Both the position numbers and the translations under genes were made by a program. This document shows, piece after piece, positions 10,894 to 24,164 of a stretch of DNA of 47,288 nt. Position 1 is the stretch's first letter; each line of letters begins with the position of its first letter. The DNA is from an uncultured Spirochaetaceae bacterium (GTDB lineage Bacteria; Spirochaetota; Spirochaetia; Treponematales; Treponemataceae): positions 1 through 47,288 of the forward strand of contig CACZPR010000091.1 of the NCBI GenBank assembly GCA_902783155.1, given 5' to 3'. The notes below the pieces were generated by a model. It was not told the origin of the DNA. It did no database searches and worked only from the letters and a program-made list of their open reading frames with translations.

Positions 10894-10941
10894 AAAAAAA
10901 ACTTCACTCCACCGCCGGATGACAGACTGGAGTTTTATAAT
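10894..10941 (+). promoter_or_regulatory. Shared envelope-gene promoter element, copy A
   Basis: Eight A (10894-10901), CACTC (10905-10909), 14 bases, AGACTG (10924-10929), and TATAAT (10936-10941). The same order and the same AGASTG-to-TATAAT distance occur at 19383-19431 and 22439-22490. The leader after it (CATAAACTAC, then AAAAGGAG) also matches copy B. No good -35 box sits 17 bases from TATAAT, which suggests an activator. Confidence 0.75.
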
Positions 10942-10976
10942 GATGGCATAAACTACAACAAAAGGAGATTTGACCT

Positions 10977-12908
10977 ATGAAACAAACAAAAAACAAGCTT
11001 TTGTCATTGCTCGGCATTCTTGCCCTGGGTTTTGCGCTCTTCTCATGTGAAACACAAGTGGAGCCTCCCGCACCCACTACCTACACGGTGACATATACAT
11101 CCGAACACGGAACGGTACCAGAGGCAATCACGGTTGAAGAGAACACGGTTCTTTCAGAGGAGCAGCTTCCAACATGTTCTTACGGAGGCCTTGTATTCAA
11201 AGGTTGGTTTGACGGAGACACAAAAGCTGTTCCCGGTGAGTATACGGTAACTGACAATGTGACACTCACAGCACGCTGGGCATCGACCGCGACCGTTTCA
11301 TACCACAGCAAGAACGGCACCGTACCGGAAAGCTTTGACGCAGAATTGCACCAGACACTTACGGCAGAAAACCTTACGCCGATCACTTGCAGCCCTTATG
11401 TTTTCCTCGGATGGTTCTACGGAAAGGACGCAAACAACAACGGAACCGGAGAGCAGATAAATGCAGGCCTTGCAATAACAAACAACACAGACCTGTATGC
11501 AAAGTGGAAGACAGCGACAGTTTCCTTTACAACACAGTACGGTACTAACCCGGCATCCATAAAAAAATACACAGGTGAGAAAATCACGGAAACGGAAATT
11601 CCTAGCCTTAATGCAAGAACCGGTTACACATCCGATGGTTGGTTCAACAGTTCCACAAAGCTCACAACTAATTACACAGTGAATGGCGATGTGGCGTTCA
11701 CGGAAAAATGGACGGCGAACACATACTCCATAACATTCAAGGCAAACGGCGGAACAGGGGATGACTACACACAGACCGTAACTTATGCTACGACGGCAAA
11801 GCTGAATCCAAACACCTTCACCCGCGAGGGCTACACCTTCAACGGATGGAACCGCGCCGCAAACGGAAGTGGAACTGCATATCCAGATAAAGCTGATTTT
11901 GCCGTGAACGAGGCAAATGGAGTTACCCTTTACGCACAGTGGACTCCAAATGAATACACAATAACATACAAGGCAAACGGAGGAACCGGCAGCGATTTCA
12001 CACAAAACGTGACTTTCGGAACAACTGTTAAGCTTGCCGCCGCCAATACATTTACACACACTGGCACTGGATTGTGCTTTGCACAATGGAATACTGATGC
12101 AGACGGAGAAGGAGCGAATTATTCAGCTGAAACTGATTTTACGGTAACAGAAGCAAATGATATAACACTGTATGCACGTTGGGAAAATATCGTAACAAGG
12201 ATAAAAAACATGACCGAATCCGGGACTATTGTTGCGACAGGAACTTGTAATACATCTACTGTACGATCTATAAATAGTGCTCTTAAAGACTTATATGAAT
12301 CACATAAGGATGTTCTGGTAACACTTGATTTGTCTGGTGTTGAAGGATTGTCCGCATTGGAAGACTCTGCATTTAACAATGGTTACGAGTATAAGTGTAA
12401 AAATCTTGAAGGAATTATTCTACCGTCCAGCGTGACATCGATAGGAGACTTTGCGTTCTTTGAATGCATCGGACTCACAAGCATAACGATACCGTCCTCC
12501 GTGACATCGATAGGAGACTATGCGTTCTATAGATGCAGCGGACTCACAAGCATAACGATACCGTCCTCCGTGACAAAGATAGGAGCCTCTGCGTTCAAAG
12601 GATGCAGCGGCCTCACAAGCATAACGATTCCGTCCTCCGTGACCTCGATAGGAGGCTCTGCGTTCGAAGAATGCAGCGGACTCACAAGCATAACGATACC
12701 GTCCTCCGTGACATCGATAGAATACCTTGCGTTCTATAGATGCAGAGGACTTACTGATGTCACTTTTGCTGATACAGAGAGCAGTTGGGATTTTTATACT
12801 TATGGCACAAAAAAAGGCACTAGAAAAATGAGTGCTACCGATACGGTGGGAAATGCAACATTGCTAAAATCAACATATGTGAATTGTGAGTGGCGCAAAC
12901 AACAGTAG
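10977..12908 (+). CDS. InlB-repeat / BspA-type leucine-rich-repeat lipoprotein
   Basis: 643 residues. A lipoprotein signal ends at the lipobox FALFSC, with cysteine at about 24, so the protein is probably surface or periplasm anchored. Five InlB B-repeat (Listeria-Bacteroides, Flg_new) domains follow at about 36-400; each ends in a GW-F and an ARW/AKW/EKW-type strand. A linker and five BspA-type LRR_5 units come next (about 476-595). Such proteins usually mediate adhesion or host and polysaccharide contact. The LRR part is encoded by nearly identical 69-bp units. AAAGGAG precedes the ATG by eight bases, and promoter copy A drives it. The last 45 residues lack repeats. Confidence 0.9.
   Translation: MKQTKNKLLSLLGILALGFALFSCETQVEPPAPTTYTVTYTSEHGTVPEAITVEENTVLSEEQLPTCSYGGLVFKGWFDGDTKAVPGEYTVTDNVTLTARWASTATVSYHSKNGTVPESFDAELHQTLTAENLTPITCSPYVFLGWFYGKDANNNGTGEQINAGLAITNNTDLYAKWKTATVSFTTQYGTNPASIKKYTGEKITETEIPSLNARTGYTSDGWFNSSTKLTTNYTVNGDVAFTEKWTANTYSITFKANGGTGDDYTQTVTYATTAKLNPNTFTREGYTFNGWNRAANGSGTAYPDKADFAVNEANGVTLYAQWTPNEYTITYKANGGTGSDFTQNVTFGTTVKLAAANTFTHTGTGLCFAQWNTDADGEGANYSAETDFTVTEANDITLYARWENIVTRIKNMTESGTIVATGTCNTSTVRSINSALKDLYESHKDVLVTLDLSGVEGLSALEDSAFNNGYEYKCKNLEGIILPSSVTSIGDFAFFECIGLTSITIPSSVTSIGDYAFYRCSGLTSITIPSSVTKIGASAFKGCSGLTSITIPSSVTSIGGSAFEECSGLTSITIPSSVTSIEYLAFYRCRGLTDVTFADTESSWDFYTYGTKKGTRKMSATDTVGNATLLKSTYVNCEWRKQQ
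12402..12757 (+). repeat. Five 69-bp tandem repeats encoding LRR units
   Basis: Each unit encodes 23 residues of the form GLTSITIPSSVTSIG-x2-AF-x2-C. Adjacent units differ by only a few bases, so the array is young and prone to gain or loss of units by slippage or recombination. Confidence 0.85.
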
Positions 12909-12980
12909 GTGTTTGTGAGCAATGATATTTGTCGGGGAGAGTTTTTATCAGATTTTAGGAGAGATAAGGAGTGATTAGAT

Positions 12981-13451
12981 ATGGGTAGTGAAAAGAATAG
13001 GAGTGATGACGAACTTAGAAATTTGTATGAGCATCGTTATGAAGCTGGTTATTACTTTTTTTATAGCAGCCTGAGTCAGGAGGATAAAGAAAGGTATGAG
13101 TCAATTTCGGCAGAGGAAGATGTAAAAAAATGGAGAAAAGAAGGAAAGTTAATAGGCAAACTGCTCTGTTATGGATTAAAAGAAAAGCATAAGGATTTTA
13201 TTGATCTAGACGAATCCATTGAAGTTTTTGTTAGACGTTGGATTATAAAACGTATTCTTGATATGAAGTCTGGAAAAAGAGATAAAAAAAATATCCAAAA
13301 TGAAGTTTTAAAAATTTCACAAGACTCAAAAAATCGAGTGACAACGTTCTTGAAAGAAGAATTGCAAAATAGCGCTTCAAAAAACTACGTATCTGAAATA
13401 AATGATATTATATCATGGTTGCAAGATGAAAAAGGAAAAGAGATGTCGTAA
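12981..13451 (+). CDS. Hypothetical protein, charged and helical
   Basis: 156 residues, not recognised. It is rich in Lys, Glu and Asp, with no membrane segment or signal peptide, so probably cytoplasmic and mostly helical. AGGAG lies ten bases before the ATG. It comes 72 bp after the lipoprotein gene and 56 bp before a PD-(D/E)XK protein gene on the same strand. Base composition drops sharply in G+C here compared with the genes on both sides, which suggests that this gene and the next arrived together. Confidence 0.6.
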   Translation: MGSEKNRSDDELRNLYEHRYEAGYYFFYSSLSQEDKERYESISAEEDVKKWRKEGKLIGKLLCYGLKEKHKDFIDLDESIEVFVRRWIIKRILDMKSGKRDKKNIQNEVLKISQDSKNRVTTFLKEELQNSASKNYVSEINDIISWLQDEKGKEMS

Positions 13452-13507
13452 AAAAACATCAATTGACATGCACGCGGTTTAATAAAAACGTATGTTTGAT
13501 ATAAGTT

Positions 13508-14845
13508 ATGAATTTGAAAATAAAAATGCAGAAAAAAACAATTGCTACCAAAAACTCTCATATTGATAATACAAAAGATATTCTTTCATATATGATAAGA
13601 ACCTATCTACCAGAGAAAAAAAGAATTTTTGATGAATATGATTTAAATCATGCCGAGAAATTCTGTTTATTTGAAAGTCTCTCTGAAAAATATAGGAATG
13701 AAACATTCCATAGTGACATTCTTTTCTCTTTGCTAAATCTGAACACTCCGGAAATTGGAATGATTAATAATGAAGAGATATTAAAGAATTTTATTTCTCT
13801 GGTAGATAAAGATAATAAATTCACTATCGATTCAAGTATTAAAATAAAAAAGGAATGCTATAATTTTGTTTTTAATGGAATGAATAAAAAACGAGGATAT
13901 ATGGATTTGTTGATTACAAATGCCCATAATCAAGCCATTATCATCGAAAACAAAATCAACAATGCCCCAGACCAACCAAATCAGTTGGTACGATATCTAA
14001 AATTTGTCACTGAAAATATATGTAACGGGAATTCCTCTGACATTTTTATCATGTATTTAACATTAGTACCAGGAAAATACCCAGAAATTGATTCATATGA
14101 TAAAAATCAGTATGATAACTATATAAGAAAACTTTTAGACGCAAAAGAAGGAAAAGATGGAAAGATATTAAAATATTGTTCTGCTATAAACTCACAAGAT
14201 AAAGAAAATTCGTTGAAATTCTTCTTAGAAAAAAGTATGGAAATTCTTGATAAAAACGTGAACCAAAATGATTTAGCAAATAGAAAAAAAATATTTTTTG
14301 AACAATACAAAACATTATTGGAACATTTGGGAGGAAATATGGTTATGGCAGATAAAGAATTGATAAAAGAAATTTTCAAGTCAAAAGACAATCTTGAAAC
14401 TGTGAGAAATTTAAATGAAGTATATTCTAAAGATGTATTAATCAATTCATATATAACCGATTCGTTAAAAAATTCTATGGAAAGCAAAGGTTTTAAGTAT
14501 GAATATGATAATACCGGTGGAGGCTTATATTATCCTATGCATGAAAATTGTAAATTTATTTTTATAGGTGGTGATTATCGAAACTTTCAGATTGCCTTTG
14601 GAATAAGAGGAAAAGAACTAAATGAAGCCGAACGAAAACCGTATGCAGATATTTTAGAAAAATATTTTACTACGCATGAAGCTATACCATGGTATGATAA
14701 AAAATTACTTATGCAGTGGGTTTTCTTAGAAATAGAGCCATTAGGTGAACAAAATAGTATGGATGAGTTTTTAAAAGACTGTACAAAAAACATAGATGGT
14801 ATCATCAAGGATTTCAATAACTCAATCAATACCAAGAGAAAATAA
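13508..14845 (+). CDS. PD-(D/E)XK nuclease superfamily protein (PDDEXK_4-like)
   Basis: 445 residues. The nuclease core is visible in the N-terminal third: GYMDLLI supplies the Asp (about residue 133) and AIIIENKIN the E-x-K (about 148-150), followed by DQPNQLVRY, whose Gln is typical of the PDDEXK_4 family. The C-terminal half contains no recognised domain. No clear ribosome binding site precedes the ATG at 13508, and an ATG six codons later is possible. The gene is the most AT-rich in the window. Genes of this family are frequent in defence islands and on mobile elements; its target is unknown. Confidence 0.75.
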   Translation: MNLKIKMQKKTIATKNSHIDNTKDILSYMIRTYLPEKKRIFDEYDLNHAEKFCLFESLSEKYRNETFHSDILFSLLNLNTPEIGMINNEEILKNFISLVDKDNKFTIDSSIKIKKECYNFVFNGMNKKRGYMDLLITNAHNQAIIIENKINNAPDQPNQLVRYLKFVTENICNGNSSDIFIMYLTLVPGKYPEIDSYDKNQYDNYIRKLLDAKEGKDGKILKYCSAINSQDKENSLKFFLEKSMEILDKNVNQNDLANRKKIFFEQYKTLLEHLGGNMVMADKELIKEIFKSKDNLETVRNLNEVYSKDVLINSYITDSLKNSMESKGFKYEYDNTGGGLYYPMHENCKFIFIGGDYRNFQIAFGIRGKELNEAERKPYADILEKYFTTHEAIPWYDKKLLMQWVFLEIEPLGEQNSMDEFLKDCTKNIDGIIKDFNNSINTKRK

Positions 14846-14876
14846 ATCGCAAGGAAGCAGTTTTATATTCTCCCGT

Positions 14877-15097
14877 TGGCATATCGCCAAGTTCCCCGGC
14901 ACATTGAAAATCATTCGCTTCGCAATCCATTGTAACCCGGCAGTCGGGGACGCAATTGGGGTGGTGAATAAAGACATGCTGTGAAACAAATCGTAAAATC
15001 AAAATCCGCTGTCCGTTCACAATAAAAAAATCAGCTTGAACTTTTTCTGCCAATTCAATTTCTGAAACATGCCCAAATTATTATTCCACAACCATTT
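14877..15097. repeat. Long direct repeat, copy 1
   Basis: Positions 14877-15069 match 15747-15939 over 193 bases with seven substitutions and no gaps. Weaker similarity continues to about 15097 and 15968. Neither open frame on the minus strand resembles a known protein, and the substitutions change residues freely, so it is probably non-coding now. A 21-bp piece at 14989-15009 (AATCGTAAAATCAAAATCCG and one more base) also occurs at 15859, 17180 and, with one change, inside the XRE gene at 18872. From 15098 to 15186 only a second short match (AATCCGCGTGACAAAAAAA) to 17193 is seen. Confidence 0.9.
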
Positions 15098-15186
15098 TAA
15101 AGAAATTACGTTATCAATCTCGAATCCGCGTGACAAAAAAATGGAATTGGGAAAAATCTATTCAGGCTACTATTTTTACCCCTGAC

Positions 15187-15215
15187 TTGACACCCTATTG
15201 GATAGGGTATACATT
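15187..15215 (+). promoter_or_regulatory. Promoter with embedded operator of the toxin-antitoxin unit
   Basis: TTGACA at 15187-15192 and TACATT at 15210-15215 are 17 bases apart. The spacer contains the perfect inverted repeat ACCCTAT-TGG-ATAGGGT (15192-15208), which touches the -35 box. This is the expected place for autorepression by the HTH antitoxin. Confidence 0.75.
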
Positions 15216-15221
15216 GTAAAT

Positions 15222-15374
15222 ATGACAAGAGAATTCATCATTACAAAAGAATTTGACCGTACTTAGAAAGAACTCGGCTTGAATGATGATGATTTAGGCG
15301 AGTTGGAAATATATCTTTGCAAGAATCCAGATTGCGGAGAGACATTACCCCTCCGCTCGAATAAAAAATGCTGA
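15222..15374 (+). pseudogene. RelE/HigB-type toxin, nonsense mutation and C-terminal deletion
   Basis: The frame begins MTREFIITKEFDRT, meets a TAG at codon 15, and continues KELGLNDDDLGELEIYL before switching to unrelated residues and a stop at codon 51. The toxin family has about 110 residues, so roughly the last 60, which carry the catalytic residues, are missing. It sits directly before the antitoxin gene in the normal toxin-first order of higBA. Confidence 0.8.
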
Positions 15375-15388
15375 GAAGGAGGCATTGG

Positions 15389-15721
15389 ATGGTAGAAAAT
15401 AAAGCATTTGAAAGCATTATGAAAGGTCTCACGGAAAGTCTTGAATATGCAAAAGGGGATACTTCAAAGGGAAGAAAAACAACTGTTACCGTTGCAGAGC
15501 TTCCTCAATACCATGATAAGGAAATCAAGCAAATACGAGAGAACCTGAACCTCACGCAGAAAAACTTTGCCTTTGTTTTGGGAGTGTCAACTAAAACTGT
15601 TGAAGCATGGGAGTCCGGCAGAAATATTCCGCAAGGAACTGCACAAAGATTCCTTCAGCTCCTGCAAACCGGCGGTAAAAAAATGTTGCAGGATTATAAT
15701 GTAGTAACAGTGACTATGTGA
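15389..15721 (+). CDS. HigA-type HTH antitoxin
   Basis: 110 residues. Cro/CI HTH in the C-terminal half (about 50-100) with LNLTQKNFAFVLGVSTKTVEAWESGRN, preceded by a helical N-terminal region (MVENKAFESIMKGLTESLEYAKG) seen in HigA-2-type antitoxins. Start 15389 is chosen because GAAGGAGG ends seven bases before it; an ATG at 15368 overlaps the toxin remnant. The gene is intact although its toxin is not. It may persist as an autorepressor or as protection against a related toxin elsewhere. Confidence 0.85.
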   Translation: MVENKAFESIMKGLTESLEYAKGDTSKGRKTTVTVAELPQYHDKEIKQIRENLNLTQKNFAFVLGVSTKTVEAWESGRNIPQGTAQRFLQLLQTGGKKMLQDYNVVTVTM

Positions 15722-15746
15722 CAAAACTATAGCTTTCTTAAATCCG

Positions 15747-15968
15747 TGGCATATCGCCATGTTGCCCGGCACATTGAAAATCATTCGCTTCGCAATCCAT
15801 TGTACCTCGGCTGTCGGGGGCGCAATTGGGGTGGTGAATAAAGACATGCTGTGAAACAAATCGTAAAATCAAAATCCGCTGTCCGTTCGCAATAAAAAAA
15901 TCAGCTTGAACTTTTTCTGCCAATTCAATTTCTGAAACACAGCCCGAATCATTCTTTCAAAACCATCT
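15747..15968. repeat. Long direct repeat, copy 2
   Basis: Same orientation as 14877-15097, about 96% identical over the first 193 bases. The two copies bracket the toxin-antitoxin unit exactly, with the left copy following the PD-(D/E)XK gene and the right copy preceding the Fic gene. This resembles cassette boundaries, but no integrase or attC-like fold was recognised. Confidence 0.9.
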
Positions 15969-15971
15969 TTG

Positions 15972-16047
15972 TAACAAGCCATAATTGCAGTGCTGTTCAT
16001 TGACGCTGCTGTGTGATAGAATAATGTTGATATTGGAATGGCAAAAT
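15972..16047 (+). repeat. 75-bp leader repeat before fic, copy 1
   Basis: It begins TAACAAGCCATAATTGC and contains GCTGCTGTGTGA, AGAATAATGT and ATGGCAAAA. It matches 18591-18667 with scattered substitutions and one indel. It covers the stretch where the fic promoter should be, so it is probably a mobile or duplicated promoter/leader. Confidence 0.8.
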
Positions 16048-16085
16048 CAAACTACAGAGGAGTAAAAGTTGAACAGCGAACTTGA
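16038..16085 (+). other. Possible 15-codon leader ORF overlapping the fic start
   Basis: ATG at 16038 opens a 15-codon frame (MAKSNYRGVKVEQRT) that stops at 16085, after the fic TTG at 16069. The GAGGAG that serves fic lies inside it. Translation of this frame could influence fic initiation, but the frame could also be the decayed start of another gene, because the same MAKxx start follows the second leader copy at 18660. Confidence 0.3.
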
Positions 16086-17124
16086 TAGTGCCTTAGAAGA
16101 ATATATTCAGCTCGGCATTCAGCAGCAGCTTGATTATGATAAATTCTATCTCTATTCAATTATTACTCACTCAACTGCAATTGAAGGTTCAACCGTAACA
16201 GAAATAGAAAATCAACTTTTGTTTGATCAGGGGATTTCTGCCAATAAGCCGATGACAGAACAATTGATGAATCTGGATTTGAAATCCGCATACGAGCAGA
16301 GTTTTGTTTACGCAAAAAAACATACGGATTATTCAATTGAACTCTTATGTAAGCTTGCAGCCCTTGTCATGAAAAATACCGGTTCAACATATAAAACTAT
16401 AGCAGGGGAATTTTCATCTGCAAAAGGGGAACTTAGACTTTTAAATGTAAGTGCCGGTCATGGTGGAAAATCATATCTTGCATGGCAGAAAGTTCCGGAC
16501 AGACTGGAAAAATTCTGCCAATGGATAAATGAAGAACGAAAGAAAATTGATAAATCAAATACTCAAAAAATCTATGAGCTTAGTTTTGAAGCTCATTACC
16601 GAATAGTTTCCATTCATCCTTGGGCAGATGGAAATGGAAGAATGAGCCGCTTGATTATGAATATGATTCAGTATGAAGCCGAAATTATTCCTTCCATTGT
16701 AAAAAAAGAAAGTCGTGCAGAATATATACAGTCTCTTTCTCTGAGCCAGGACTATGAAGATTCTTCAAAGTTTATAGACTTTATGCTAAAACATCATATT
16801 GAAAATCTTAGGCATCAGATAGCAGATTATAAAAAATCTATGGAAGCTGATTTTAATGATAACGAACAAAAAACTTCGGTGCAAAATCAACATACAAATG
16901 ATACCGCAAAGATTACTCAAAAGATAACTGTAAAGATTACTGTAAACCAACAGAAAATAATTGATGCAATTAAAGAAAATCCATTTATTACGCAAGATGA
17001 ATTATCATCTATTGTTGGAATTGCACGCCTTAACATAAATAAAAACATGAAAAAATTACAGGAGCAGGGAATCATCAAACGAGTTGGAGCAGACAAAAAC
17101 GGGCATTGGGAGATTGTAAAATAA
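16069..17124 (+). CDS. Fic-domain protein (predicted AMPylase) with C-terminal winged helix
   Basis: 351 residues. The N-terminal inhibitory motif STAIEG is at 35-40, of class II type, where the glutamate blocks ATP gamma-phosphate. The Fic motif HPWADGNGRMSR is at about 183-194 with the catalytic His and the full DGNGR loop, so enzyme activity is expected. The last 70 residues form a winged-helix DNA-binding domain (TQDELSSIVGIARLNINKNMKKL). The start is TTG at 16069, supported by GAGGAG seven bases upstream. Such proteins probably attach AMP to a target protein under self-inhibition; the target is unknown. It lies immediately behind the second long repeat and a leader repeat. Confidence 0.9.
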   Translation: MNSELDSALEEYIQLGIQQQLDYDKFYLYSIITHSTAIEGSTVTEIENQLLFDQGISANKPMTEQLMNLDLKSAYEQSFVYAKKHTDYSIELLCKLAALVMKNTGSTYKTIAGEFSSAKGELRLLNVSAGHGGKSYLAWQKVPDRLEKFCQWINEERKKIDKSNTQKIYELSFEAHYRIVSIHPWADGNGRMSRLIMNMIQYEAEIIPSIVKKESRAEYIQSLSLSQDYEDSSKFIDFMLKHHIENLRHQIADYKKSMEADFNDNEQKTSVQNQHTNDTAKITQKITVKITVNQQKIIDAIKENPFITQDELSSIVGIARLNINKNMKKLQEQGIIKRVGADKNGHWEIVK

Positions 17125-17202
17125 GCACAACGGATGTCGCAATAAATCTGGAAAATATTTTCCCCGCCTTTATCACATCAATCGTAAAATCAAAATCCGC
17201 GT
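17125..17202 (-). pseudogene. C-terminal fragment of an XRE regulator gene
   Basis: Minus-strand reading gives ADFDFTIDVIKAGKIFSRF and a short tail, close to the C-terminus of the intact XRE gene at 18794-19123 (ANFDFTIDAIKAILDG, then SFETF). No HTH remains. The same ADFDFTI coding piece is also buried in both long repeats. Confidence 0.6.
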
Positions 17203-17224
17203 GACAAAAAAAAACGCACAAGCA

Positions 17225-17277
17225 TTGACAAGTAAACTTGGTATGATTATAATCAAAACGATGACAAGCAAACTTGG
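17225..17277 (+). promoter_or_regulatory. Consensus promoter with two operators
   Basis: TTGACA (17225-17230) and TATAAT (17248-17253) match the sigma-70 consensus exactly with a 17-base spacer. Two near-identical 15-mers, GACAAGTAAACTTGG (17227-17241) and GACAAGCAAACTTGG (17263-17277), are 36 bp apart. Each contains the palindrome CAAG-N4-CTTG. One covers the -35/spacer and the other the expected start site, so a repressor here would shut the promoter tightly. The XRE gene ending this operon is the likely repressor. Confidence 0.85.
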
Positions 17278-17299
17278 CAACAAAAAGGAGGCCTGTTTT

Positions 17300-18025
17300 A
17301 TGACATTGCAGAGAATCCGGCGGTTCACGCTCATAATTTCAATGCTGCTCTTTCCGATTACAATCTGGTATTTTTCTCCGTACCTTATAATCATGGCGGC
17401 GTTTAATCACATAATCAACGGAAGCTTCATTGTCTTTACGCTGATGTTTTTGTTCGGCATGTTTTTCGGCAGACTCTGGTGCGGATTTTTTTGTCCGACC
17501 GGATGCATGGGCGAATGTTTTGCGCAGTTTTCACCAAAGCCACCGAAACAGGGTTGGCGCAATTACATAAAATACGGAATCTGGCTCGTGTGGATTTCCG
17601 GGATAATTGTGTGCCACGTTCTTGGAAAAGGCGGATACACGGTTCAGCCGTTTTTTATGACGGACCACGGCATTTCAATTTCAAGCATCTACAATTATGT
17701 AATCTACTACGGCATTGTGATTTTATTTTTGATTCCAGCAATCGTTCATGGAAAAAGAGCAAACTGCCACTACATCTGCTGGATGGCTCCGTTCATGATT
17801 TTTGGCGGAAAGGTCGGTCACTTTTTACATCTTCCACAGCTTAAAATAAAATCGGAAAAATCAAAATGCACGGGATGCGGGATGTGCGAAAAAAAATGTC
17901 CCATGAGCCTTAACGTAAAATCGCTTGCGGAATGTGGTGAAATAAAAACTGCGGAATGTATTTTGTGCGGAGAGTGCGTGAGTGCATGCAAAAACAAAGT
18001 CCTAAAATATAAGATGGGGAGATGA
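17300..18025 (+). CDS. Membrane 4Fe-4S protein, NapH/CcoG-like
   Basis: 241 residues. About five membrane spans (Fer4_5-type) with conserved cysteine motifs between them: RLWCGFFCPTGCMGEC near residues 56-71 and CHYICW near 155. A C-terminal pair of ferredoxin motifs follows: CTGCGMCEKKCP and CILCGECVSACK. This is the layout of quinol-to-periplasm electron-transfer proteins such as NapH. Redox partners are not present in the window. The start at 17300 is chosen because AAGGAGG lies eight to nine bases upstream; earlier in-frame ATGs lie inside the promoter. First gene of a three-gene operon with a small membrane protein and an XRE regulator. Confidence 0.85.
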   Translation: MTLQRIRRFTLIISMLLFPITIWYFSPYLIIMAAFNHIINGSFIVFTLMFLFGMFFGRLWCGFFCPTGCMGECFAQFSPKPPKQGWRNYIKYGIWLVWISGIIVCHVLGKGGYTVQPFFMTDHGISISSIYNYVIYYGIVILFLIPAIVHGKRANCHYICWMAPFMIFGGKVGHFLHLPQLKIKSEKSKCTGCGMCEKKCPMSLNVKSLAECGEIKTAECILCGECVSACKNKVLKYKMGR

Positions 18026-18028
18026 AAA

Positions 18029-18367
18029 ATGACAAAAGAAGAGATTCTGGAAAAAAGCCGTGATGAAAATGCAGGCCGGGATATTGACGATATTGATGTT
18101 CAGAGATCGGCGGCAAGGGTTGCGTATTTTGGGTCCCCCGTATTGTGCGCGGGAATTTCAATATTGCAATTCATTTTTAAAAAGCGTGTGAGCGTCCAAT
18201 GCTGGATTGTATTTTTCGGAATGCTTGCAATTGCGTTTTCTGTAAAATATTTCAAACGTAAAAAACTTCACGAACTTTTTGTTGCCATAGGTTATTTTTT
18301 GATTTTCGCATCGCTTGTCGTTGCATTTATTTTTGAACTGACCGGACGGTTCGGAGGAGAATCATGA
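18029..18367 (+). CDS. Small membrane protein paired with an XRE regulator (DUF6442-like)
   Basis: 112 residues: a charged cytoplasmic N-terminus (KSRDENAGRDIDDID) and three hydrophobic segments at about 35-50, 58-73 and 85-103. GGGGAG precedes the ATG, three bases after the stop of the Fe-S gene. Membrane proteins of this shape are commonly encoded next to a tiny Cro/CI regulator, as here, where its end overlaps the XRE start by four bases. The function of the family is unknown. Confidence 0.75.
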   Translation: MTKEEILEKSRDENAGRDIDDIDVQRSAARVAYFGSPVLCAGISILQFIFKKRVSVQCWIVFFGMLAIAFSVKYFKRKKLHELFVAIGYFLIFASLVVAFIFELTGRFGGES

Positions 18368-18570
18368 ACGAGTCACTTGTCCTGAAAAACCGGCTGAAAG
18401 AAATCCGTGCAGAAAAAGGACTTTCACAAACGGAGCTTTCACGGATGGTCGGCGTATCGCGGAATACAATCAGTTCAATAGAGACGCTTCAATACTGCCC
18501 CACCGCAAAGCTTGCCCTCATTTTATGTGTCGCCCTGGACAAAAAATTTGAGGAAGTTTTTTATTTTTGA
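18364..18570 (+). CDS. Minimal Cro/CI-family regulator
   Basis: 68 residues, essentially only the HTH domain (LKEIRAEKGLSQTELSRMVG, then VSRNTISSIE), ending KFEEVFYF as is usual in this YgzD/YozG-like group. GGAGGAGA precedes the ATG, which overlaps the upstream stop. It probably represses its own operon through the CAAG-N4-CTTG sites at 17227-17277. Confidence 0.88.
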   Translation: MNESLVLKNRLKEIRAEKGLSQTELSRMVGVSRNTISSIETLQYCPTAKLALILCVALDKKFEEVFYF

Positions 18571-18590
18571 TATTGTTATAAATCTGGTTT

Positions 18591-18667
18591 TAACAAGCCA
18601 TAATTGCCATGATGTTCAATGCCGCTGCTGTGTGACAGAATAATGTGGAAGAGATTGAAATGGCAAA
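18591..18667 (+). repeat. 75-bp leader repeat, copy 2, without a gene
   Basis: Second copy of the fic leader repeat, here 20 bp after the XRE gene. It ends in ATGGCAAAAGCAAAAGAG followed by TTGTATGA, an open frame of only eight codons. The copy has lost whatever gene it served. The following stretch up to 18793 shows no convincing gene. Confidence 0.8.
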
Positions 18668-18793
18668 AGCAAAAGAGCTTGTATGAATGTTTTTAATATT
18701 GAAAAAATAGCGAAGACCGTTAGGTCTGAACAAATCCGTTTGTTAATAAAAGAAGGATTAAGTAGACAAAAACGGACACTGGGAGATTTCAAC

Positions 18794-19123
18794 TCACCCT
18801 CTATCAAAATAATCCCTGCAGAAAGTCTCAAACGATTTTACCTGGCCGTCCAGAATCGCCTTTATCGCATCAATCGTAAAATCAAAATTCGCAGACCGGA
18901 CATTTTCCTTTCCACGGAACAAATCCGAAACTGAAACATCGAGCGCATCGGAAAGTTTTGCGAGAATAGCAGGAGACGGAAACTTGTTGGCGCACTCAAT
19001 CTGCGACAAAAACGGAACCGAAATATCCGCCGTTTCAGCAAGCTCCGCCTGTGAAATGTGCCGGACAGCCCTGAACATCTTGATGTTGTGCGCAAGATTA
19101 TCCCTGATTTCCTTTTCTGTCAT
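18794..19123 (-). CDS. Cro/CI-family (XRE) regulator with C-terminal tail
   Basis: 109 residues. HTH_3 domain at about 10-65 (ISQAELAETADISVPFLSQI, then ECANKFPS), followed by a 40-residue helical tail with ANFDFTIDAIKAILDG. AAGGA precedes the ATG at 19123. The coding sequence of the tail recurs as fragments at 14989, 15859 and 17180, so this gene family has been shuffled across the area. ATTTG-N8-CAAAT at 19173-19190 in its upstream region is a possible operator. Confidence 0.85.
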   Translation of the reverse strand: MTEKEIRDNLAHNIKMFRAVRHISQAELAETADISVPFLSQIECANKFPSPAILAKLSDALDVSVSDLFRGKENVRSANFDFTIDAIKAILDGQVKSFETFCRDYFDRG

Positions 19124-19174
19124 ATTCTCTTTCCTTACAGTTATTTTTACTATTTCTAATTGATTAAGAAAAAT

Positions 19175-19203
19175 TTGACAAATAGCAAATCGGTTGGTAA
19201 AAT
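19175..19203 (+). promoter_or_regulatory. Orphan near-consensus promoter
   Basis: TTGACA (19175-19180), 17 bases, TAAAAT (19198-19203). It points right, but no supported gene begins until 19466, which has its own promoter element. A 51-codon frame from 19253 has no ribosome binding site and is unlikely. The transcript could be a small RNA, or the promoter could be a leftover. Confidence 0.55.
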
Positions 19204-19248
19204 ATATCTTAAAGGCACAGTTTGGTTTGCCAAGAGGATATATTTTAC
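19197..19248. repeat. 12-bp perfect inverted repeat overlapping the orphan promoter
   Basis: GTAAAATATATC (19197-19208) and GATATATTTTAC (19237-19248) are exact complements. GGCA (19214-19217) and TGCC (19228-19231) pair inside. The left arm contains the -10 box of the orphan promoter. A third GTAAAATATAT lies near 19336. The rest of the spacer to 19382 shows nothing. Confidence 0.75.
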
Positions 19249-19382
19249 GAAAAATGAACGCAAATGCTTGTCGTCATGCAGATTTTGTCCCTCCGTTTCA
19301 GCCGCACCCCACACCCGCGACTGCAAATTTCTACCGTAAAATATATACACAAACCAAATCCATAAATTCTCCAAAAAATCCG

Positions 19383-19431
19383 AAAAAAAATTTTCACTCT
19401 ATCACGTAACGCTAGAGTGAGCTTATATAAT
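19383..19431 (+). promoter_or_regulatory. Shared envelope-gene promoter element, copy B
   Basis: Eight A (19383-19390), CACTC (19395-19399), 14 bases, AGAGTG (19414-19419), TATAAT (19426-19431). CACTCTA and TAGAGTG also form an inverted repeat. Leader to the ATG is 34 bases and aligns with copy A. Confidence 0.8.
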
Positions 19432-19465
19432 GAAGCCATAAACTACTACTTAAAAGGAGTTGACT

Positions 19466-22387
19466 ATGAGAAACATGAAAAGGAAAATCGTTTCGGTCGT
19501 AATTGCTTTTTTTGCGATGGCAGTTACTTGTGCTGGAGCTTTTGCCGACACCGTAACATTCGACAAAAAGAATAAGGGAAACGAAAAGGATTTTGTCACG
19601 TTTGAATTCAGTACTTCTACTGAACTTGCTGCATTGTGCAAAAAATATCCGAAGAATAATGCCGAAGTCCTTATACAGGCAGGCTCTCCACTTGGAAAAA
19701 TTCCAGTTTCAAATAATGATGATGCTGAGTTTTTCTCAATTATAAAATGTTTTCCCGGTGCTGAATTTGATATGAATCTTTTTACTAATAGCGGTGTTCG
19801 GCTTAATGCGGATTCAGACGGAACCACATTTGAAAACGATGCGCTCATCGAATTCAAATACGATGGAAAAGCTTATTCATTGTCAAAAGTCACCGGTCAG
19901 GAACCAAGTATCGTATCATTCTTTAAGTTCAAACTGAAAGATCGATATTATTATCATGCTTATGTCAGCGAATTTATAAATGACTTGAGAAATGGTATTT
20001 GCAATGAGCAAAAATACGAATTCCGCTCGACAAAAGAGTTTGAAAAGCTCCGGGAAAAACACAAAGATGAATTATTTTGCGTAATAATTCCTGCTAATTC
20101 TAAGATTCGAAATGAAAAAGAATTGGAAAAACTTTCAAAACTGATTTTTAATGATTCAAAAACCATTAAGGACAAATATAATTCCAATTTTACTTCAACC
20201 TCAACAGTTGTAATAGAACCTCTTATTATTATTCCTCAGGACAGAAATGATCCAGTAAGTAGTATCGACCAAACAATTTCGTCACTATCTTCTGTCAGCA
20301 AGGGATCACGAAAATTTAATGTATGCGAAGAATCGGACTCAACTGTTATCAAGTTTGAAAAAGCCATTCTTAATAGCGAACGAAAAGCAAACGAAAAAGC
20401 CGGGCTTGGTAAAATTACAAATGAAGAAGTCAAGAATGAACGCAAACAGAATGAAGCTGCAGGATACGGACGGCTTACCAATGCGGAGGTAGCAAAAAAA
20501 CTTGAAAACGAAAGAGCAGCAAATGAAAAAGCCGGGCTTGGTAAAATTACAAATGAAGAAGTTGAGAAAGAACGCAAGCAGAATGAGGCTGCCGGGTATG
20601 GACGGCTTACCAATACGGAGGTAGCAAAAAAGCTTGACGCAGAAAGAAATGAAAATGATAATGCCGGCTATGGAAGATTGACCAATGCGGAAGTTGAAGA
20701 AGAACGCAAGTCAAATAAAGCTGCCGGAAATGGATCGATCACCAACGCAGAGCTTTTAGAAATACAGGGGACAGGTGGCAAAGCATGTTCTGTTTATTTT
20801 TTTGATTTTGAAGTAAAGGATAAGGCAGAGTGGAATGTAAAAAATTTTCCTGAGGGAAATGCCAAAACAAGAATGGAAACGGCTTTGGAAAACAGGAAGC
20901 AATATAATTTCAACCTGCTGACGACATTAAAAAAGCTGGACAAGGGGCATGAAAAAGAGTCCATATCTGTTACAATTCCCGTTGGAGCAAAAATGTGGAA
21001 CGAAAAGGATATGGTGGCTTTTATGGAATATTTTTATCTTGACACATCTAAGGCTCAAGAATATGTAAACACATTTATAATGCCAAAAATTAAAAAAAAC
21101 AAACCTGTGATATTTGAATTTTATGTATATGAAGGAAGGCGATATTATTCAATTTTTCTAAGCCAGTCACTAGCAGATCAATTTGAAGCAGAAAAAGAAA
21201 AAGAACGAATTGCAAATGAAGCTGCGGGTCGCGGTCGGTTTACAAATGCAGAAATAAACAAACAGTCACTTATGCAATTTGTTAAACAGGCAAAAGCGTA
21301 TGAACAAAAAAAGCAGTGGGCATTTGCTCTGAATTCTTATTACGATGCGATGGCATTGGATGTTGATCCTTATGCTAAAAAAGAAGCTGTGGAAGGTTAT
21401 ACGGCCTTAAAAAACACAATAGAAAGCGGAAACCCCGGATTTGGAAAATACAATGTATTTGATATACCGGGAGAATGGAAAAACCTTTTGATTGACGCAG
21501 AGAAATGTGCCTGTACATTCAGCCCTTATGATGTTTCCGTTGAACGCATCGAGTTTAAGGAAGTGGATTATAAAACAAAAACTGCAACTTATGACGTTCT
21601 GAAATCAGTAAATGTTAACGATAGATACAATAAAGTTGTAAAAGTAATCGAAAGCGGGTATAAAACAGCTTGGCGTAGTAGTTGGCCGGATTTGCCCAAA
21701 CCGGAAGATTGGCCGAAATATTCCGTCAGCGGTATCTATGCATTCAATTACCCAGAAGGTACTGATGTGGACAGCTCAGGTAAAAACAAATTGAAAACTG
21801 AACGCAGGAATTTCAATGCATTTGCAATATATTTTACAGATGACTTAAGTTACCCACGTAAATATATAAATGGCTATGGCATTGGTTATGAAAACAACCC
21901 GTTGTTTGGATATAGAACCCTCACCGATAAAGTATACTTATTCGAATACGAGATATCTATTTTTGATGAAAACGGCAAACCATTAACAAAGGGACAAAGA
22001 TTTACCATGGAAAAACAGGGTACAGACTATTATTCTTATATACCGAATGATTCAATTAAAGGTATATCCGCAGAAGTAATGAATCTTATAGATAATGGAA
22101 AGGCATATGCAAAAATTACAGGATGCTACCTGAAATATGGCTATGGAGAATATATATCTGTTTATGACAATGCAGTAAATGGTTTACACCAGATTGTCGG
22201 AAAAATGGAACACAACAGTCTTGTTTGTGATTTCGTTACGCTTTCAGGTGCGCAGGGTTGGGTGGCAACACTTTCCAAATGCGAAGCGTTTATTCATAAC
22301 TTAAAAGATCTAAAGGTTCGTATTGAAGATCCAAATGCGGAAAAAAATGTTGAAAAAGCTTTTGAGTTATGGGGTGAAAAAAAATAA
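19466..22387 (+). CDS. Secreted repeat protein of unknown function
   Basis: 973 residues. A signal peptide (basic start, hydrophobic 8-25, cleavage after AGAFA) sends it out of the cytoplasm; no lipobox. At about residues 304-433 there are about seven imperfect copies of an 18-24-residue unit of the form E-R-x2-N-x2-A-G-x-G-x2-T-N-x-E-V, with one more near 575-598 (IANEAAGRGRFTNAE). The sequence between and after is mixed alpha/beta with many Lys and aromatic residues, and two segments (about 160-240 and 460-540) look like duplicated domains. I do not recognise the family. AAAAGGAG lies before the ATG at 19466; an in-frame TTG two codons earlier is less likely. Driven by promoter copy B. Confidence 0.8.
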   Translation: MRNMKRKIVSVVIAFFAMAVTCAGAFADTVTFDKKNKGNEKDFVTFEFSTSTELAALCKKYPKNNAEVLIQAGSPLGKIPVSNNDDAEFFSIIKCFPGAEFDMNLFTNSGVRLNADSDGTTFENDALIEFKYDGKAYSLSKVTGQEPSIVSFFKFKLKDRYYYHAYVSEFINDLRNGICNEQKYEFRSTKEFEKLREKHKDELFCVIIPANSKIRNEKELEKLSKLIFNDSKTIKDKYNSNFTSTSTVVIEPLIIIPQDRNDPVSSIDQTISSLSSVSKGSRKFNVCEESDSTVIKFEKAILNSERKANEKAGLGKITNEEVKNERKQNEAAGYGRLTNAEVAKKLENERAANEKAGLGKITNEEVEKERKQNEAAGYGRLTNTEVAKKLDAERNENDNAGYGRLTNAEVEEERKSNKAAGNGSITNAELLEIQGTGGKACSVYFFDFEVKDKAEWNVKNFPEGNAKTRMETALENRKQYNFNLLTTLKKLDKGHEKESISVTIPVGAKMWNEKDMVAFMEYFYLDTSKAQEYVNTFIMPKIKKNKPVIFEFYVYEGRRYYSIFLSQSLADQFEAEKEKERIANEAAGRGRFTNAEINKQSLMQFVKQAKAYEQKKQWAFALNSYYDAMALDVDPYAKKEAVEGYTALKNTIESGNPGFGKYNVFDIPGEWKNLLIDAEKCACTFSPYDVSVERIEFKEVDYKTKTATYDVLKSVNVNDRYNKVVKVIESGYKTAWRSSWPDLPKPEDWPKYSVSGIYAFNYPEGTDVDSSGKNKLKTERRNFNAFAIYFTDDLSYPRKYINGYGIGYENNPLFGYRTLTDKVYLFEYEISIFDENGKPLTKGQRFTMEKQGTDYYSYIPNDSIKGISAEVMNLIDNGKAYAKITGCYLKYGYGEYISVYDNAVNGLHQIVGKMEHNSLVCDFVTLSGAQGWVATLSKCEAFIHNLKDLKVRIEDPNAEKNVEKAFELWGEKK
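20378..20765 (+). repeat. Tandem repeats encoding NxxAGxGxxTN units
   Basis: Alternating unit types (AGLGKITNEEV and AGYGRLTNAEV) repeat as a longer pair. The stretch GCCGGGCTTGGTAAAATTAC is identical at 20400 and 20530, showing recent duplication within the gene. Confidence 0.8.
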
Positions 22388-22438
22388 AACTGCATAAATA
22401 GATTTTTTTATTCCATCCCAACAATCACAGTTTTAATG

Positions 22439-22490
22439 AAAAAAAATCCACTCGCCCTATCATTAAAATGACAGAGTGAGTGGATATCTT
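22439..22490 (+). promoter_or_regulatory. Shared envelope-gene promoter element, copy C
   Basis: Eight A (22439-22446), CACTC (22449-22453), 19 bases, AGAGTGAG (22473-22480), TATCTT (22485-22490). The AGASTG-to-minus-10 distance equals copies A and B, but the -10 is weaker and the CACTC gap is five bases longer. ATCCACTC and GAGTGGAT form an inverted repeat. Confidence 0.6.
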
Positions 22491-22553: not shown

Positions 22554-24164
22554 ATGACAGAATATATTGTACCCATAATAATCAGTTTTGTAGTTTTAGT
22601 CATCATAGGAATTGTTATTCAAAAGTTCGCTCTAAGCATGATAGACACAGAATACTGCCGCAGAAATTACTTGTCCATGGCAAACAGCGTAATAGAAGAA
22701 AAAATAAAAAAAATAGAAGAACGTGCTTTTAAGATATCCTGGAAAATCGGCGGAATAATTGGTTGCGGCGTATCAGTTTTGTTCTTCATTCTAAAGATAT
22801 TTAAGTTCAATAATTTTTTCTTTGGAATATTAAAATTCCTTGCGCCTGTAGTCGTTTGTATGATTATCGCGCTCATTATTGCCCAAATAATTGTTGATGC
22901 TTATTGCACAAAACATTTCGGAAAATCTCTGGCTTTCATTGACATGTCTAACAACGCTTCAGAGATTAAAAAAGCTGTTTGCAAAGAAGATGTATCACCT
23001 CTTGATGAAGGAAGCGAAAAATATGGAGACAAGTATCTGCTCTCTCTTGGAAAAGGTTTGGGGGCTTCAATAAAAAGGACAATCTGGCTCTACCGCATAA
23101 TTGGTGCAATCATCGGATTTGCAGCAGGAAGCGTCACCCTATTCATTCTAATGACCTTGGGTATAATGCCGGAAAATGTCTTCCTTGTTATTTTGGCAGG
23201 AGTCCTTGGAGAAGCAATTTTTACAATCCTGTTTAATATTTTCGCAAAAAAATATTGTGTGGAACATTATGGATATTTGGCGACTTATTATCAACTGCAT
23301 GTTGACATTTATTCAATTAAGAAAAATCAAGATAAAATACTGGCTAAAGATGGTCAGGCAAAAAAAATTGATTCAATCTCCTTAAAAGAAGGCTATCAGT
23401 TTGCATCAGTTCCTTCACGGATTTTTGCAGAGAAAACGGATGCGCCGGGAAATTATTACTGTCCATATTGCTATGCGGAAATCTATTCGGAAACTTCATC
23501 CATGTGCGGAAGTTGCGGAAAATCATTGGGAGAGAGCATTCCTTCCAATCCGCAGCCAGAAAAAATTGATTTGACGAAATCCCCAAGTCCAGTGGCCGAA
23601 CAAGCTTCATCTCCAGATGTCCAAGCAAATGCGGTTAAAGTCGAAACAGCTGTTGAGCCTAAAACCGCTCCAGTTTCTGAATCAGTGGGTGGCAATCAGG
23701 CTGCGCCGAAAATAAAAAAATTATACATAATAATCGGTGCTGTGATGCTTGCCGTTATTGCGGGTCTGGTTTCCGTCATAATCTATCTTATAAACAGGGG
23801 ACCAAACTACGTGTATCAATATTTGCCGTCAGAAACGCAATATGAAAAAGTTGAGGTTCCGGTTTACAATTATGAGCAGGCAGAGCAAGTTGATGTTGTA
23901 ATGGATTTGACTTTACGCTGCACCGAAAATCTCAGAATCCGCGCGAGTGACGATTTTAACAGCGATGTAATCACCACGATGAACAGCGGAACGAAGGTCA
24001 AAGTGCTTACGATCGGAAAACAGGATGAAGTCGATGGAGTAAAATCAAATTGGATTCAGGTTGAAGTTCTTCCAGGCGGAAAAGACAAGGATTTGAACAG
24101 AATACCAAACGGAACGACTGGATGGTGCTTCGGAGGATTTTTGGAATCCTGCACAAAAAATTAA
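22554..24164 (+). CDS. Membrane protein with zinc ribbon and bacterial SH3 domain
   Basis: 536 residues. About five membrane spans in the N-terminal half (near 4-24, 60-80, 92-114, 180-202, 208-230), then a zinc ribbon with CPYCYAE and CGSCGKS (about 303-322). A Pro/Ser-rich linker and a sixth span (about 385-408) lead to a C-terminal SH3_3 domain (LRIRASDDFNSDV ... WIQVEV ... GWCFGGFLES, about 460-532). The order suggests a cytosolic ribbon and an external SH3 domain that may bind peptidoglycan. CGGAGG precedes the ATG at 22554, which is preferred to an upstream frame start without one. Promoter copy C is 63 bases upstream. Confidence 0.8.
   Translation: MTEYIVPIIISFVVLVIIGIVIQKFALSMIDTEYCRRNYLSMANSVIEEKIKKIEERAFKISWKIGGIIGCGVSVLFFILKIFKFNNFFFGILKFLAPVVVCMIIALIIAQIIVDAYCTKHFGKSLAFIDMSNNASEIKKAVCKEDVSPLDEGSEKYGDKYLLSLGKGLGASIKRTIWLYRIIGAIIGFAAGSVTLFILMTLGIMPENVFLVILAGVLGEAIFTILFNIFAKKYCVEHYGYLATYYQLHVDIYSIKKNQDKILAKDGQAKKIDSISLKEGYQFASVPSRIFAEKTDAPGNYYCPYCYAEIYSETSSMCGSCGKSLGESIPSNPQPEKIDLTKSPSPVAEQASSPDVQANAVKVETAVEPKTAPVSESVGGNQAAPKIKKLYIIIGAVMLAVIAGLVSVIIYLINRGPNYVYQYLPSETQYEKVEVPVYNYEQAEQVDVVMDLTLRCTENLRIRASDDFNSDVITTMNSGTKVKVLTIGKQDEVDGVKSNWIQVEVLPGGKDKDLNRIPNGTTGWCFGGFLESCTKN

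What the first reader, a model, noticed from the sequence alone, without database searches (positions are those of the whole stretch)
10894..22490. Three unrelated envelope genes share one unusual promoter element
Upstream of the InlB/LRR lipoprotein (10894-10941), the 973-residue secreted repeat protein (19383-19431) and the zinc-ribbon/SH3 membrane protein (22439-22490) the same parts occur in the same order: A8, CACTC, then AGASTG, then a -10 hexamer starting exactly 12 bases after the AGASTG start. The CACTC to AGASTG gap is 14 in the first two and 19 in the third. The leaders of the first two also align (CATAAACTAC, AAAAGGAG). No -35 box is present. This looks like a small regulon controlled by an unknown activator, with the three products perhaps forming one surface system.
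Basis: partly seen in the sequence, partly recalled or inferred. Interest (0 to 1): 0.75.

Follow-up and report, generated by a model that had tools for sequence, protein, structure and literature searches.

The report
Leucine-rich-repeat switch for Treponema promoters
Three promoters in this Treponema carry the same 25-letter mirror-image DNA site, which stands before dozens of genes in related species and is likely read by an unusual regulator that joins a leucine-rich-repeat part, predicted to be a sensor, to a DNA-binding part related to those of anti-phage regulators.

Summary
The three sites are copies of one 25-bp inverted repeat, [C/T]ASTCTATCA-N5-TGATAGASTR, then N6-7, then TATAAT. 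In site 3 the true left arm is CGCCCTATCA (centre 6), so the odd 19-base gap vanishes. A matrix trained only on other genomes ranks the three sites 1-3 in the window, above anything in 1 Mb of random sequence. A model of the element reaches E<=1e-3 in 21 of 59 genomes of the order, own included, often in clusters.

Elsewhere it stands directly before WYL-domain regulator genes; solved WYL regulators (BrxR) bind the same geometry. This genome has no WYL gene of that clade, but three proteins fusing BspA-type leucine-rich repeats to the same winged helix (LRR-HTH), two behind the element. In 3 of 11 LRR-HTH loci one element precedes an LRR lipoprotein, like that of site 1, followed by LRR-HTH.

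I propose that LRR-HTH dimers read these promoters. No -35 box and fixed spacing favour activation; repression is a close rival. One three-part 'surface system' is not supported. New variant of the WYL-operator kind; nothing was bench-tested.

The parts
10894..10901 (+). A8 tract before site 1
   Evidence: A-runs of 5 or more precede 34 of 55 sites against 11.6% of control positions
10905..10929 (+). site 1, inverted repeat CACTCCACCG-ccgga-TGACAGACTG (arms 10905-10914 and 10920-10929)
   Evidence: score 26.6 with matrix from other genomes
10936..10941 (+). -10 hexamer TATAAT of site 1, 6 bp behind the repeat
10977..12908 (+). lipoprotein, 643 aa, InlB-type (List_Bact_rpt) and BspA-type LRR_5 repeats; the recurrent partner of the element
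   Evidence: relatives behind elements on own C100, in G005 (two), G028 and L164, L170, L171, L172
12981..13451 (+). 156-aa protein without Pfam family, perhaps in one operon with the lipoprotein
   Evidence: no plus-strand terminator-like site listed in 12850-15400
13508..14845 (+). PD-(D/E)XK protein, 445 aa, matches phage-defence candidate PDC-S26; perhaps the same operon
   Evidence: Pfam PF14281; PADLOC PDC-S26 E 1.4e-28
19383..19390 (+). A8 tract before site 2
19395..19419 (+). site 2, inverted repeat CACTCTATCA-cgtaa-CGCTAGAGTG
   Evidence: score 29.8
19426..19431 (+). -10 hexamer TATAAT of site 2
19466..22387 (+). 973-aa protein with a signal-like N-terminus, no Pfam family
   Evidence: partial relatives in 7 other genomes
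22439..22446 (+). A8 tract before site 3
22453..22478 (+). site 3, inverted repeat CGCCCTATCA-ttaaaa-TGACAGAGTG (6-bp centre), inside a wider hairpin ATCCACTC...GAGTGGAT
   Evidence: score 23.0
22485..22490 (+). -10 hexamer TATCTT of site 3
22554..24164 (+). 536-aa protein with hydrophobic stretches, two CxxC motifs (zinc-ribbon-like) and an SH3_3 domain

Best explanation
The three promoters share a 25-bp inverted repeat (10-bp arms, 5-6-bp centre) fixed 6 bp before the -10 hexamer that is likely the binding site of a winged-helix regulator dimer of the WYL kind, predicted in this genome to be the three LRR-HTH proteins of contig C100, which would most likely switch the promoters on by taking over the job of the missing -35 box. 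Shown directly: the repeat and its spacing; its recurrence, often clustered, in related genomes; its place right before genes for WYL regulators and LRR-HTH proteins; and the homology of the LRR-HTH C-terminus to the winged helix of those WYL regulators. Inferred: that LRR-HTH binds the repeat; that the LRR part senses a signal, in the slot that the WYL domain fills in relatives; the sign (activation about 55%, repression about 40%); and that the output is a conflict- or phage-response programme that here includes surface LRR lipoproteins.
For: Repeat: 76 cores with 5-bp centre against 0-3 for each other centre length from 0 to 15 in 527 kb of loci (loci were picked for element or WYL hits). 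Strict -10 hexamers 6 bp (33) or 7 bp (15) behind it, at most 6 at any other offset 0-39. WYL link: exact core within 330 bp before 6 of 53 WYL-type genes, at most one mismatch before 11. Of the 8 WYL genes whose helix matches the LRR-HTH profile at E<=1e-15, 6 have the exact core, of the other 45 none (Fisher 1.2e-6, relatedness not corrected). LRR-HTH helix: profile positions 9-84 of the WYL family, E 1.5e-19, 1.5e-16 and 1.2e-10 for the three own proteins (alignment); AlphaFold model with LRR, linker and winged helix, pLDDT 88.9. Linkage: 10 of 11 loci fetched by LRR-HTH protein carry the element, none in random sequence three times as long; in 6 of 11 it stands on the LRR-HTH gene or operon. 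Geometry: Acinetobacter BrxR binds a 25-bp pseudo-palindrome with a central five bp (PMC9122589, passages); E. fergusonii BrxR 11-bp repeats with 5-bp spacer (PMC9122601, passages). Sign: no -35 and fixed spacing, as at the -26 site of the WYL activators PafBC and SiwR (PMC10693628, passages).
Against: Binding and sign are untested. LRR-HTH lacks the WYL/WCX parts through which BrxR dimerises, so how it would hold a palindrome is open. The closest solved relatives are repressors or proposed repressors. Some genomes with elements show no close reader: G013 has strong sites but only a WYL fragment with stops, and G009, G016, G017 and G025 have one or few sites and no WYL of this clade. Own right arms are TGACAG or GCTAG types rather than TGATAG. 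The WYL gene of the matching clade in G020 has no core directly upstream (4 mismatches). L167 has no element. Diverged repeats before other WYL genes do not all keep the 6-bp spacing: G039:C75 and G015:C3:100023 differ, and another clade (G034:C38, G019) has a repeat over the -10. Foldseek puts CapW only at rank 48 with E 0.31 and it is not among the 50 rows of the second aligner.
Confidence: 0.5

Rival explanations
1. Same binding site and same regulators, but as a repressor: LRR-HTH or WYL dimers sit over about -43 to -19 and block RNA polymerase until a signal releases them, as shown for CapW and proposed for BrxR.
For: Acinetobacter BrxR's 25-bp site overlaps the predicted -35 and its authors suggest repression (PMC9122589, passages); CapW represses from palindromes over -10 (PMC9122588, passages); BrxR of E. 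fergusonii represses (PMC9122601, passages). Extended -10 TGN in 17 of 55 sites could let promoters work without -35. Other Treponema WYL genes have repeats on or behind the -10.
Against: Repressor sites need no fixed distance to -10, yet 48 strict -10 hexamers lie at 6 or 7 bp. A usable -35 is absent from nearly all sites (2 of 55), so most promoters would be weak when released.
Confidence: 0.38
2. The element is read by some other, unrecognised factor; WYL and LRR-HTH genes are only passengers of the same islands and are themselves targets.
For: Genomes with elements but no close WYL or LRR-HTH reader (G013, G009, G016, G017, G025). In the clusters XRE-type HTH genes also occur and sigma-factor genes stand behind some elements.
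Against: The exact core sits directly before 6 of the 8 closest WYL genes, the repeat diverges with the protein in G048 paralogues, and the geometry equals that of solved WYL regulators. Some genomes are incomplete (61-100%).
Confidence: 0.1
3. The inverted repeat is a hairpin, either an intrinsic terminator for the opposite strand (A8 read as T8) or a mobile repeat, and not a regulator site.
For: On the minus strand site 3 is a stem followed by T8 and folds better than its shuffles (z -4.9).
Against: Site 1 and the C100 site fold no better than shuffles (z -0.29 and +1.41), site 2 weakly (-1.59). The letters themselves are conserved, the centre is 5 bp in most, a -10 sits at a fixed distance, and A-runs of 5 or more occur at only 34 of 55 sites.
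Confidence: 0.02

Closest known systems
BrxR (HTH-WYL-WCX regulator of BREX; PMC9122589, PMC9122601, passages seen)
   Same: winged helix; pseudo-palindromic site with 10-11-bp arms and 5-bp centre, 25 bp and over -35 in Acinetobacter; site before its own gene. Only PDB sequence hit of the G035 WYL protein (7t8k, E 0.0075, over its WYL part)
   Different: own-genome candidates have LRR in place of WYL/WCX and the helix at the C-terminus; the element is repeated before many genes; -10 spacing fixed and -35 absent
CapW (WYL repressor of CBASS; PMC9122588, passages seen)
   Same: homodimer on a palindrome in its promoter; Foldseek match of the LRR-HTH model, 73 columns, rmsd 2.3, probability 0.99 but E 0.31 and no residue range given
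   Different: CapW sites overlap -10; here the repeat lies 6-7 bp before -10
PafBC and SiwR (WYL activators; PMC10693628, passages seen)
   Same: action at about -26 relative to a -10; promoters here lack -35, as for sigma adaptation (promoter detail recalled)
   Different: palindrome rather than the PafBC/SiwR -26 motif; no activation data; LRR instead of WYL in this genome
BspA-type LRR proteins (e.g. T. pallidum TpLRR, 6mlx)
   Different: LRR-HTH shows no signal-like N-terminus in the alignment (by eye) and ends in a DNA-binding domain

Membership tests
HTH-WYL-WCX regulators (BrxR/CapW/PafBC): LRR-HTH of this genome | winged helix homologous to that of WYL regulators | tested here: met
   profile positions 9-84 of local WYL family, E 1.5e-19; alignment; helices and wing in model
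HTH-WYL-WCX regulators (BrxR/CapW/PafBC): LRR-HTH of this genome | WYL domain | tested here: not met
   Pfam finds LRR_5 but no WYL in the three own proteins; they end after the wing
HTH-WYL-WCX regulators (BrxR/CapW/PafBC): element-linked WYL proteins of relatives | WYL domain with WCX extension | tested here: met
   G048 protein: WYL E 1.3e-17 above cut-off; WCX 19.7 bits, below its cut-off of 23.9; only this one was run in Pfam
BrxR-type binding site | 10-11-bp inverted arms with 5-bp centre near the regulator's own promoter | tested here: met
   geometry from PMC9122601 and PMC9122589 passages
BrxR/CapW repressors | repression of the target operon | not testable with these tools
   no expression data
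BrxR/CapW repressors | association with phage-defence genes | tested here: inconclusive
   IetA-like AAA ATPases, PDC-S26, PDC-M09A, HEPN/MNT pair near elements, but many targets have no family and PADLOC found nothing for several
PafBC/SiwR sigma-adaptation promoters | no -35 box, factor site at fixed distance from -10 | tested here: met
   2 of 55 with 4 or more of 6 -35 bases; spacing 6-7 bp
PafBC/SiwR sigma-adaptation promoters | activation through contact with sigma | not testable with these tools
   needs transcription assays
Intrinsic terminator | stable stem followed by a T-run in the copies | tested here: not met
   fold z -0.29, -1.59, -4.90, +1.41 for sites 1, 2, 3 and the C100 site; A-run of 5 or more at 34 of 55

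The most novel reading that the evidence does not exclude
Treponemes have swapped the sensing half of a WYL immune-type regulator for a leucine-rich-repeat sensor, giving a one-protein bacterial analogue of LRR immune receptors in which the LRR talks straight to DNA. It controls islands, marked by a common 25-bp promoter element, whose parts include matching surface LRR lipoproteins, AAA ATPases and split, non-flagellar FlhA and FliG pieces.
Probability: 0.3. Interest if true: 0.85.

Novelty: new variant of a known kind. Interest (0 to 1): 0.62.

Why it matters
It ties a conserved promoter element to a known class of DNA-binding domain and to a domain swap (LRR for WYL); the listings of three paper searches (10 of 15, 8 of 56 and 0 of 0 papers shown) held nothing like it. 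If true, it shows how treponemes switch surface LRR lipoproteins together with defence-like islands, makes the signal of a cytoplasmic bacterial LRR protein testable with a reporter, and gives a searchable mark for islands of unknown function.

Full report
WHAT WAS CLAIMED AND WHAT IS THERE. All coordinates hold. The genes encode a lipoprotein-like protein with InlB-type and BspA-type LRR repeats, a 973-aa protein without a Pfam family, and a 536-aa protein with hydrophobic stretches, two CxxC motifs and an SH3_3 domain. In the own genome (3.1 Mb, 118 contigs; the window is the whole of contig C91) the literal pattern has four matches: these three and one before a paralogue of the lipoprotein on contig C100; the reversed control pattern has none.

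THE REAL SHAPE OF THE ELEMENT. A sequence-only model of the four sites, searched in 59 genomes (own and 58 relatives), gave hits that cluster: four on own contig C100, others within about 12 kb in G048 and G035 and within 7-8 kb in G005 and G013. Reading them showed one 25-bp inverted repeat, [C/T]ASTCTATCA-N5-TGATAGASTR, then 6-7 bp, then TATAAT. A second model (28 sites) reached E<=1e-3 in 21 of 59 genomes, own included. Eight of the 21 gave training sites, 13 did not.

IS IT MORE THAN CHANCE? A matrix from 19 sites of other genomes puts the window's sites first to third (29.8, 26.6, 23.0; next 13.8); the best score in 1 Mb of first-order random sequence is 16.2. In 527 kb of fetched loci 86 distinct places score 12 or more with the 26-site matrix, and 300 kb of random sequence has none at 8 or more. 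The core with a 5-bp centre occurs 76 times, against 0-3 for each other centre length. Those loci were picked for element or WYL hits, so the counts describe shape, not genome-wide density. A cleaner test is the set of 11 loci fetched later by the LRR-HTH protein: 10 of 11 have a place scoring 12 or more (L167 has none, L173 only 12.8), and random sequence three times as long has none.

THE PROMOTER. Strict -10 hexamers lie 6 bp (33 cases) or 7 bp (15) behind the repeat and at most 6 times at any other offset from 0 to 39. Counted from the usual place of a -10, the repeat covers about -43 to -19; no start site is mapped. -35 likeness is depleted: 2 of 55 sites with 4 or more of 6 bases against 14.5% of control positions. 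A-runs of 5 or more precede 34 of 55 sites against 11.6%, perhaps an UP element (general knowledge). In 17 of 55 the -10 is extended by TGN.

WHO READS IT IN RELATIVES? In G048 a WYL-domain gene (PF13280, E 1.3e-17) starts 6 bp behind the -10 of an element. Exact cores also stand right before WYL genes in G035, G005, G001 and twice in G021; cores with one or two mismatches in G015, G024 and G012. Of 53 WYL-type genes compared, 6 have the exact core and 11 the core with at most one mismatch within 330 bp. A G048 paralogue has a diverged 10-5-10 repeat with the same 6-bp spacing, another with 8 bp. Further WYL genes have repeats placed otherwise: G039:C75 far before its -10, G015:C3:100023 behind it, and another clade over it. 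Solved relatives share the geometry: Acinetobacter BrxR, 25-bp pseudo-palindrome with a central five bp, overlapping a predicted -35 (PMC9122589, passages); E. fergusonii BrxR, 11-bp repeats with 5-bp spacer (PMC9122601, passages). CapW sites overlap -10 (PMC9122588, passages).

GENE ORDER. The full-length fusion occurs in 3 of 59 genomes: G000, G005 and G028. LRR lipoproteins directly behind elements were found in the same three (two, two and one). In T. saccharophilum (L170), an uncultured Treponema (L171) and T. zioleckii (L172) one element is followed by the lipoprotein and then by LRR-HTH, with a 147-aa gene between in the last. In L164, L165 and L174 the element stands before LRR-HTH itself. 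So 6 of 11 loci have it on the LRR-HTH gene or operon. This is why I take LRR-HTH as the likely reader of sites 1-3. G005 has both kinds of protein, so there either could serve.

WHAT DOES IT CONTROL? Behind or near elements (with Pfam and PADLOC samples): WYL and LRR-HTH regulators, LRR lipoproteins, AAA ATPases (three IetA-like by PADLOC), a DnaQ-type exonuclease in G015 with a look-alike in G005 and one further off in G048, a MoxR-like ATPase, HD proteins, a sigma-70-type factor in G031, TPR and ankyrin proteins, FlhA and FliG pieces; many have no family. In the window the gene two behind site 1 matches the phage-defence candidate PDC-S26, with no plus-strand terminator-like site listed between. 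This leans towards a conflict programme without proving it.

SIGN. For activation: fixed spacing, no -35, and a proximal arm near the -26 site used by PafBC and SiwR (PMC10693628, passages). For repression: the closest solved relatives and the differently placed repeats of other WYL clades. I commit to activation at about 55 to 40.

LIMITS. Nothing was measured. Counts and the Fisher test treat relatives as independent. Homology of the helix is solid; binding by LRR-HTH is inferred. How LRR-HTH dimerises without WYL/WCX is open. Several genomes with few elements show no close reader (G009, G013, G016, G017, G025).

Noticed in passing
L049 (own contig C100) 2412-3446; G048:C1:304807-306687; G015:C3; G021:C1 and C2; G020:C4; G011:C62: Extra FlhA (FHIPEP) proteins or split N- and C-terminal halves lie in the element clusters, apart from the normal FlhA: of 14 non-canonical places, 9 are within 5 kb of an element, of 16 canonical ones checked 0 (left out before counting: G027:C66 at a contig edge, the split G036 hit, and sub-cut-off G028:C101). 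In C100 the piece follows an AAA ATPase behind one element.
   Followed up: partly
G015:C3:7755-8072 (L116 7371-8108) and G024:C8:278173-278487: Orphan 245-aa proteins with a FliG C-terminal domain stand directly behind elements; both genomes have a normal-length FliG elsewhere.
   Followed up: partly
L147 1235-2083 (G031); look-alikes in L148 (G027), L155 (G029), L169: A 282-aa sigma-70-type factor (regions 2, 3, 4 by Pfam for L147 only) stands behind elements, in G031 and G027 next to a WYL gene.
   Followed up: no
G034:C38, G019:C134, G015:C3:163908, G004:C12: Another Treponema WYL clade has a TATCA-TTTAG-TGATA-like repeat upstream; in G034 and G019 it overlaps the -10 of the WYL gene, as with CapW.
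   Followed up: no
window 13508-17124: Behind site 1 lie a PDC-S26-like PD-(D/E)XK protein, an XRE/MqsA-like HTH gene and a Fic protein (SoFic-like by PADLOC), a small defence-like stretch.
   Followed up: no
L049 7130-8065 and L165 1812-2747: FGE-sulfatase-domain proteins in two LRR-HTH loci; in L165 one stands right behind an element.
   Followed up: no
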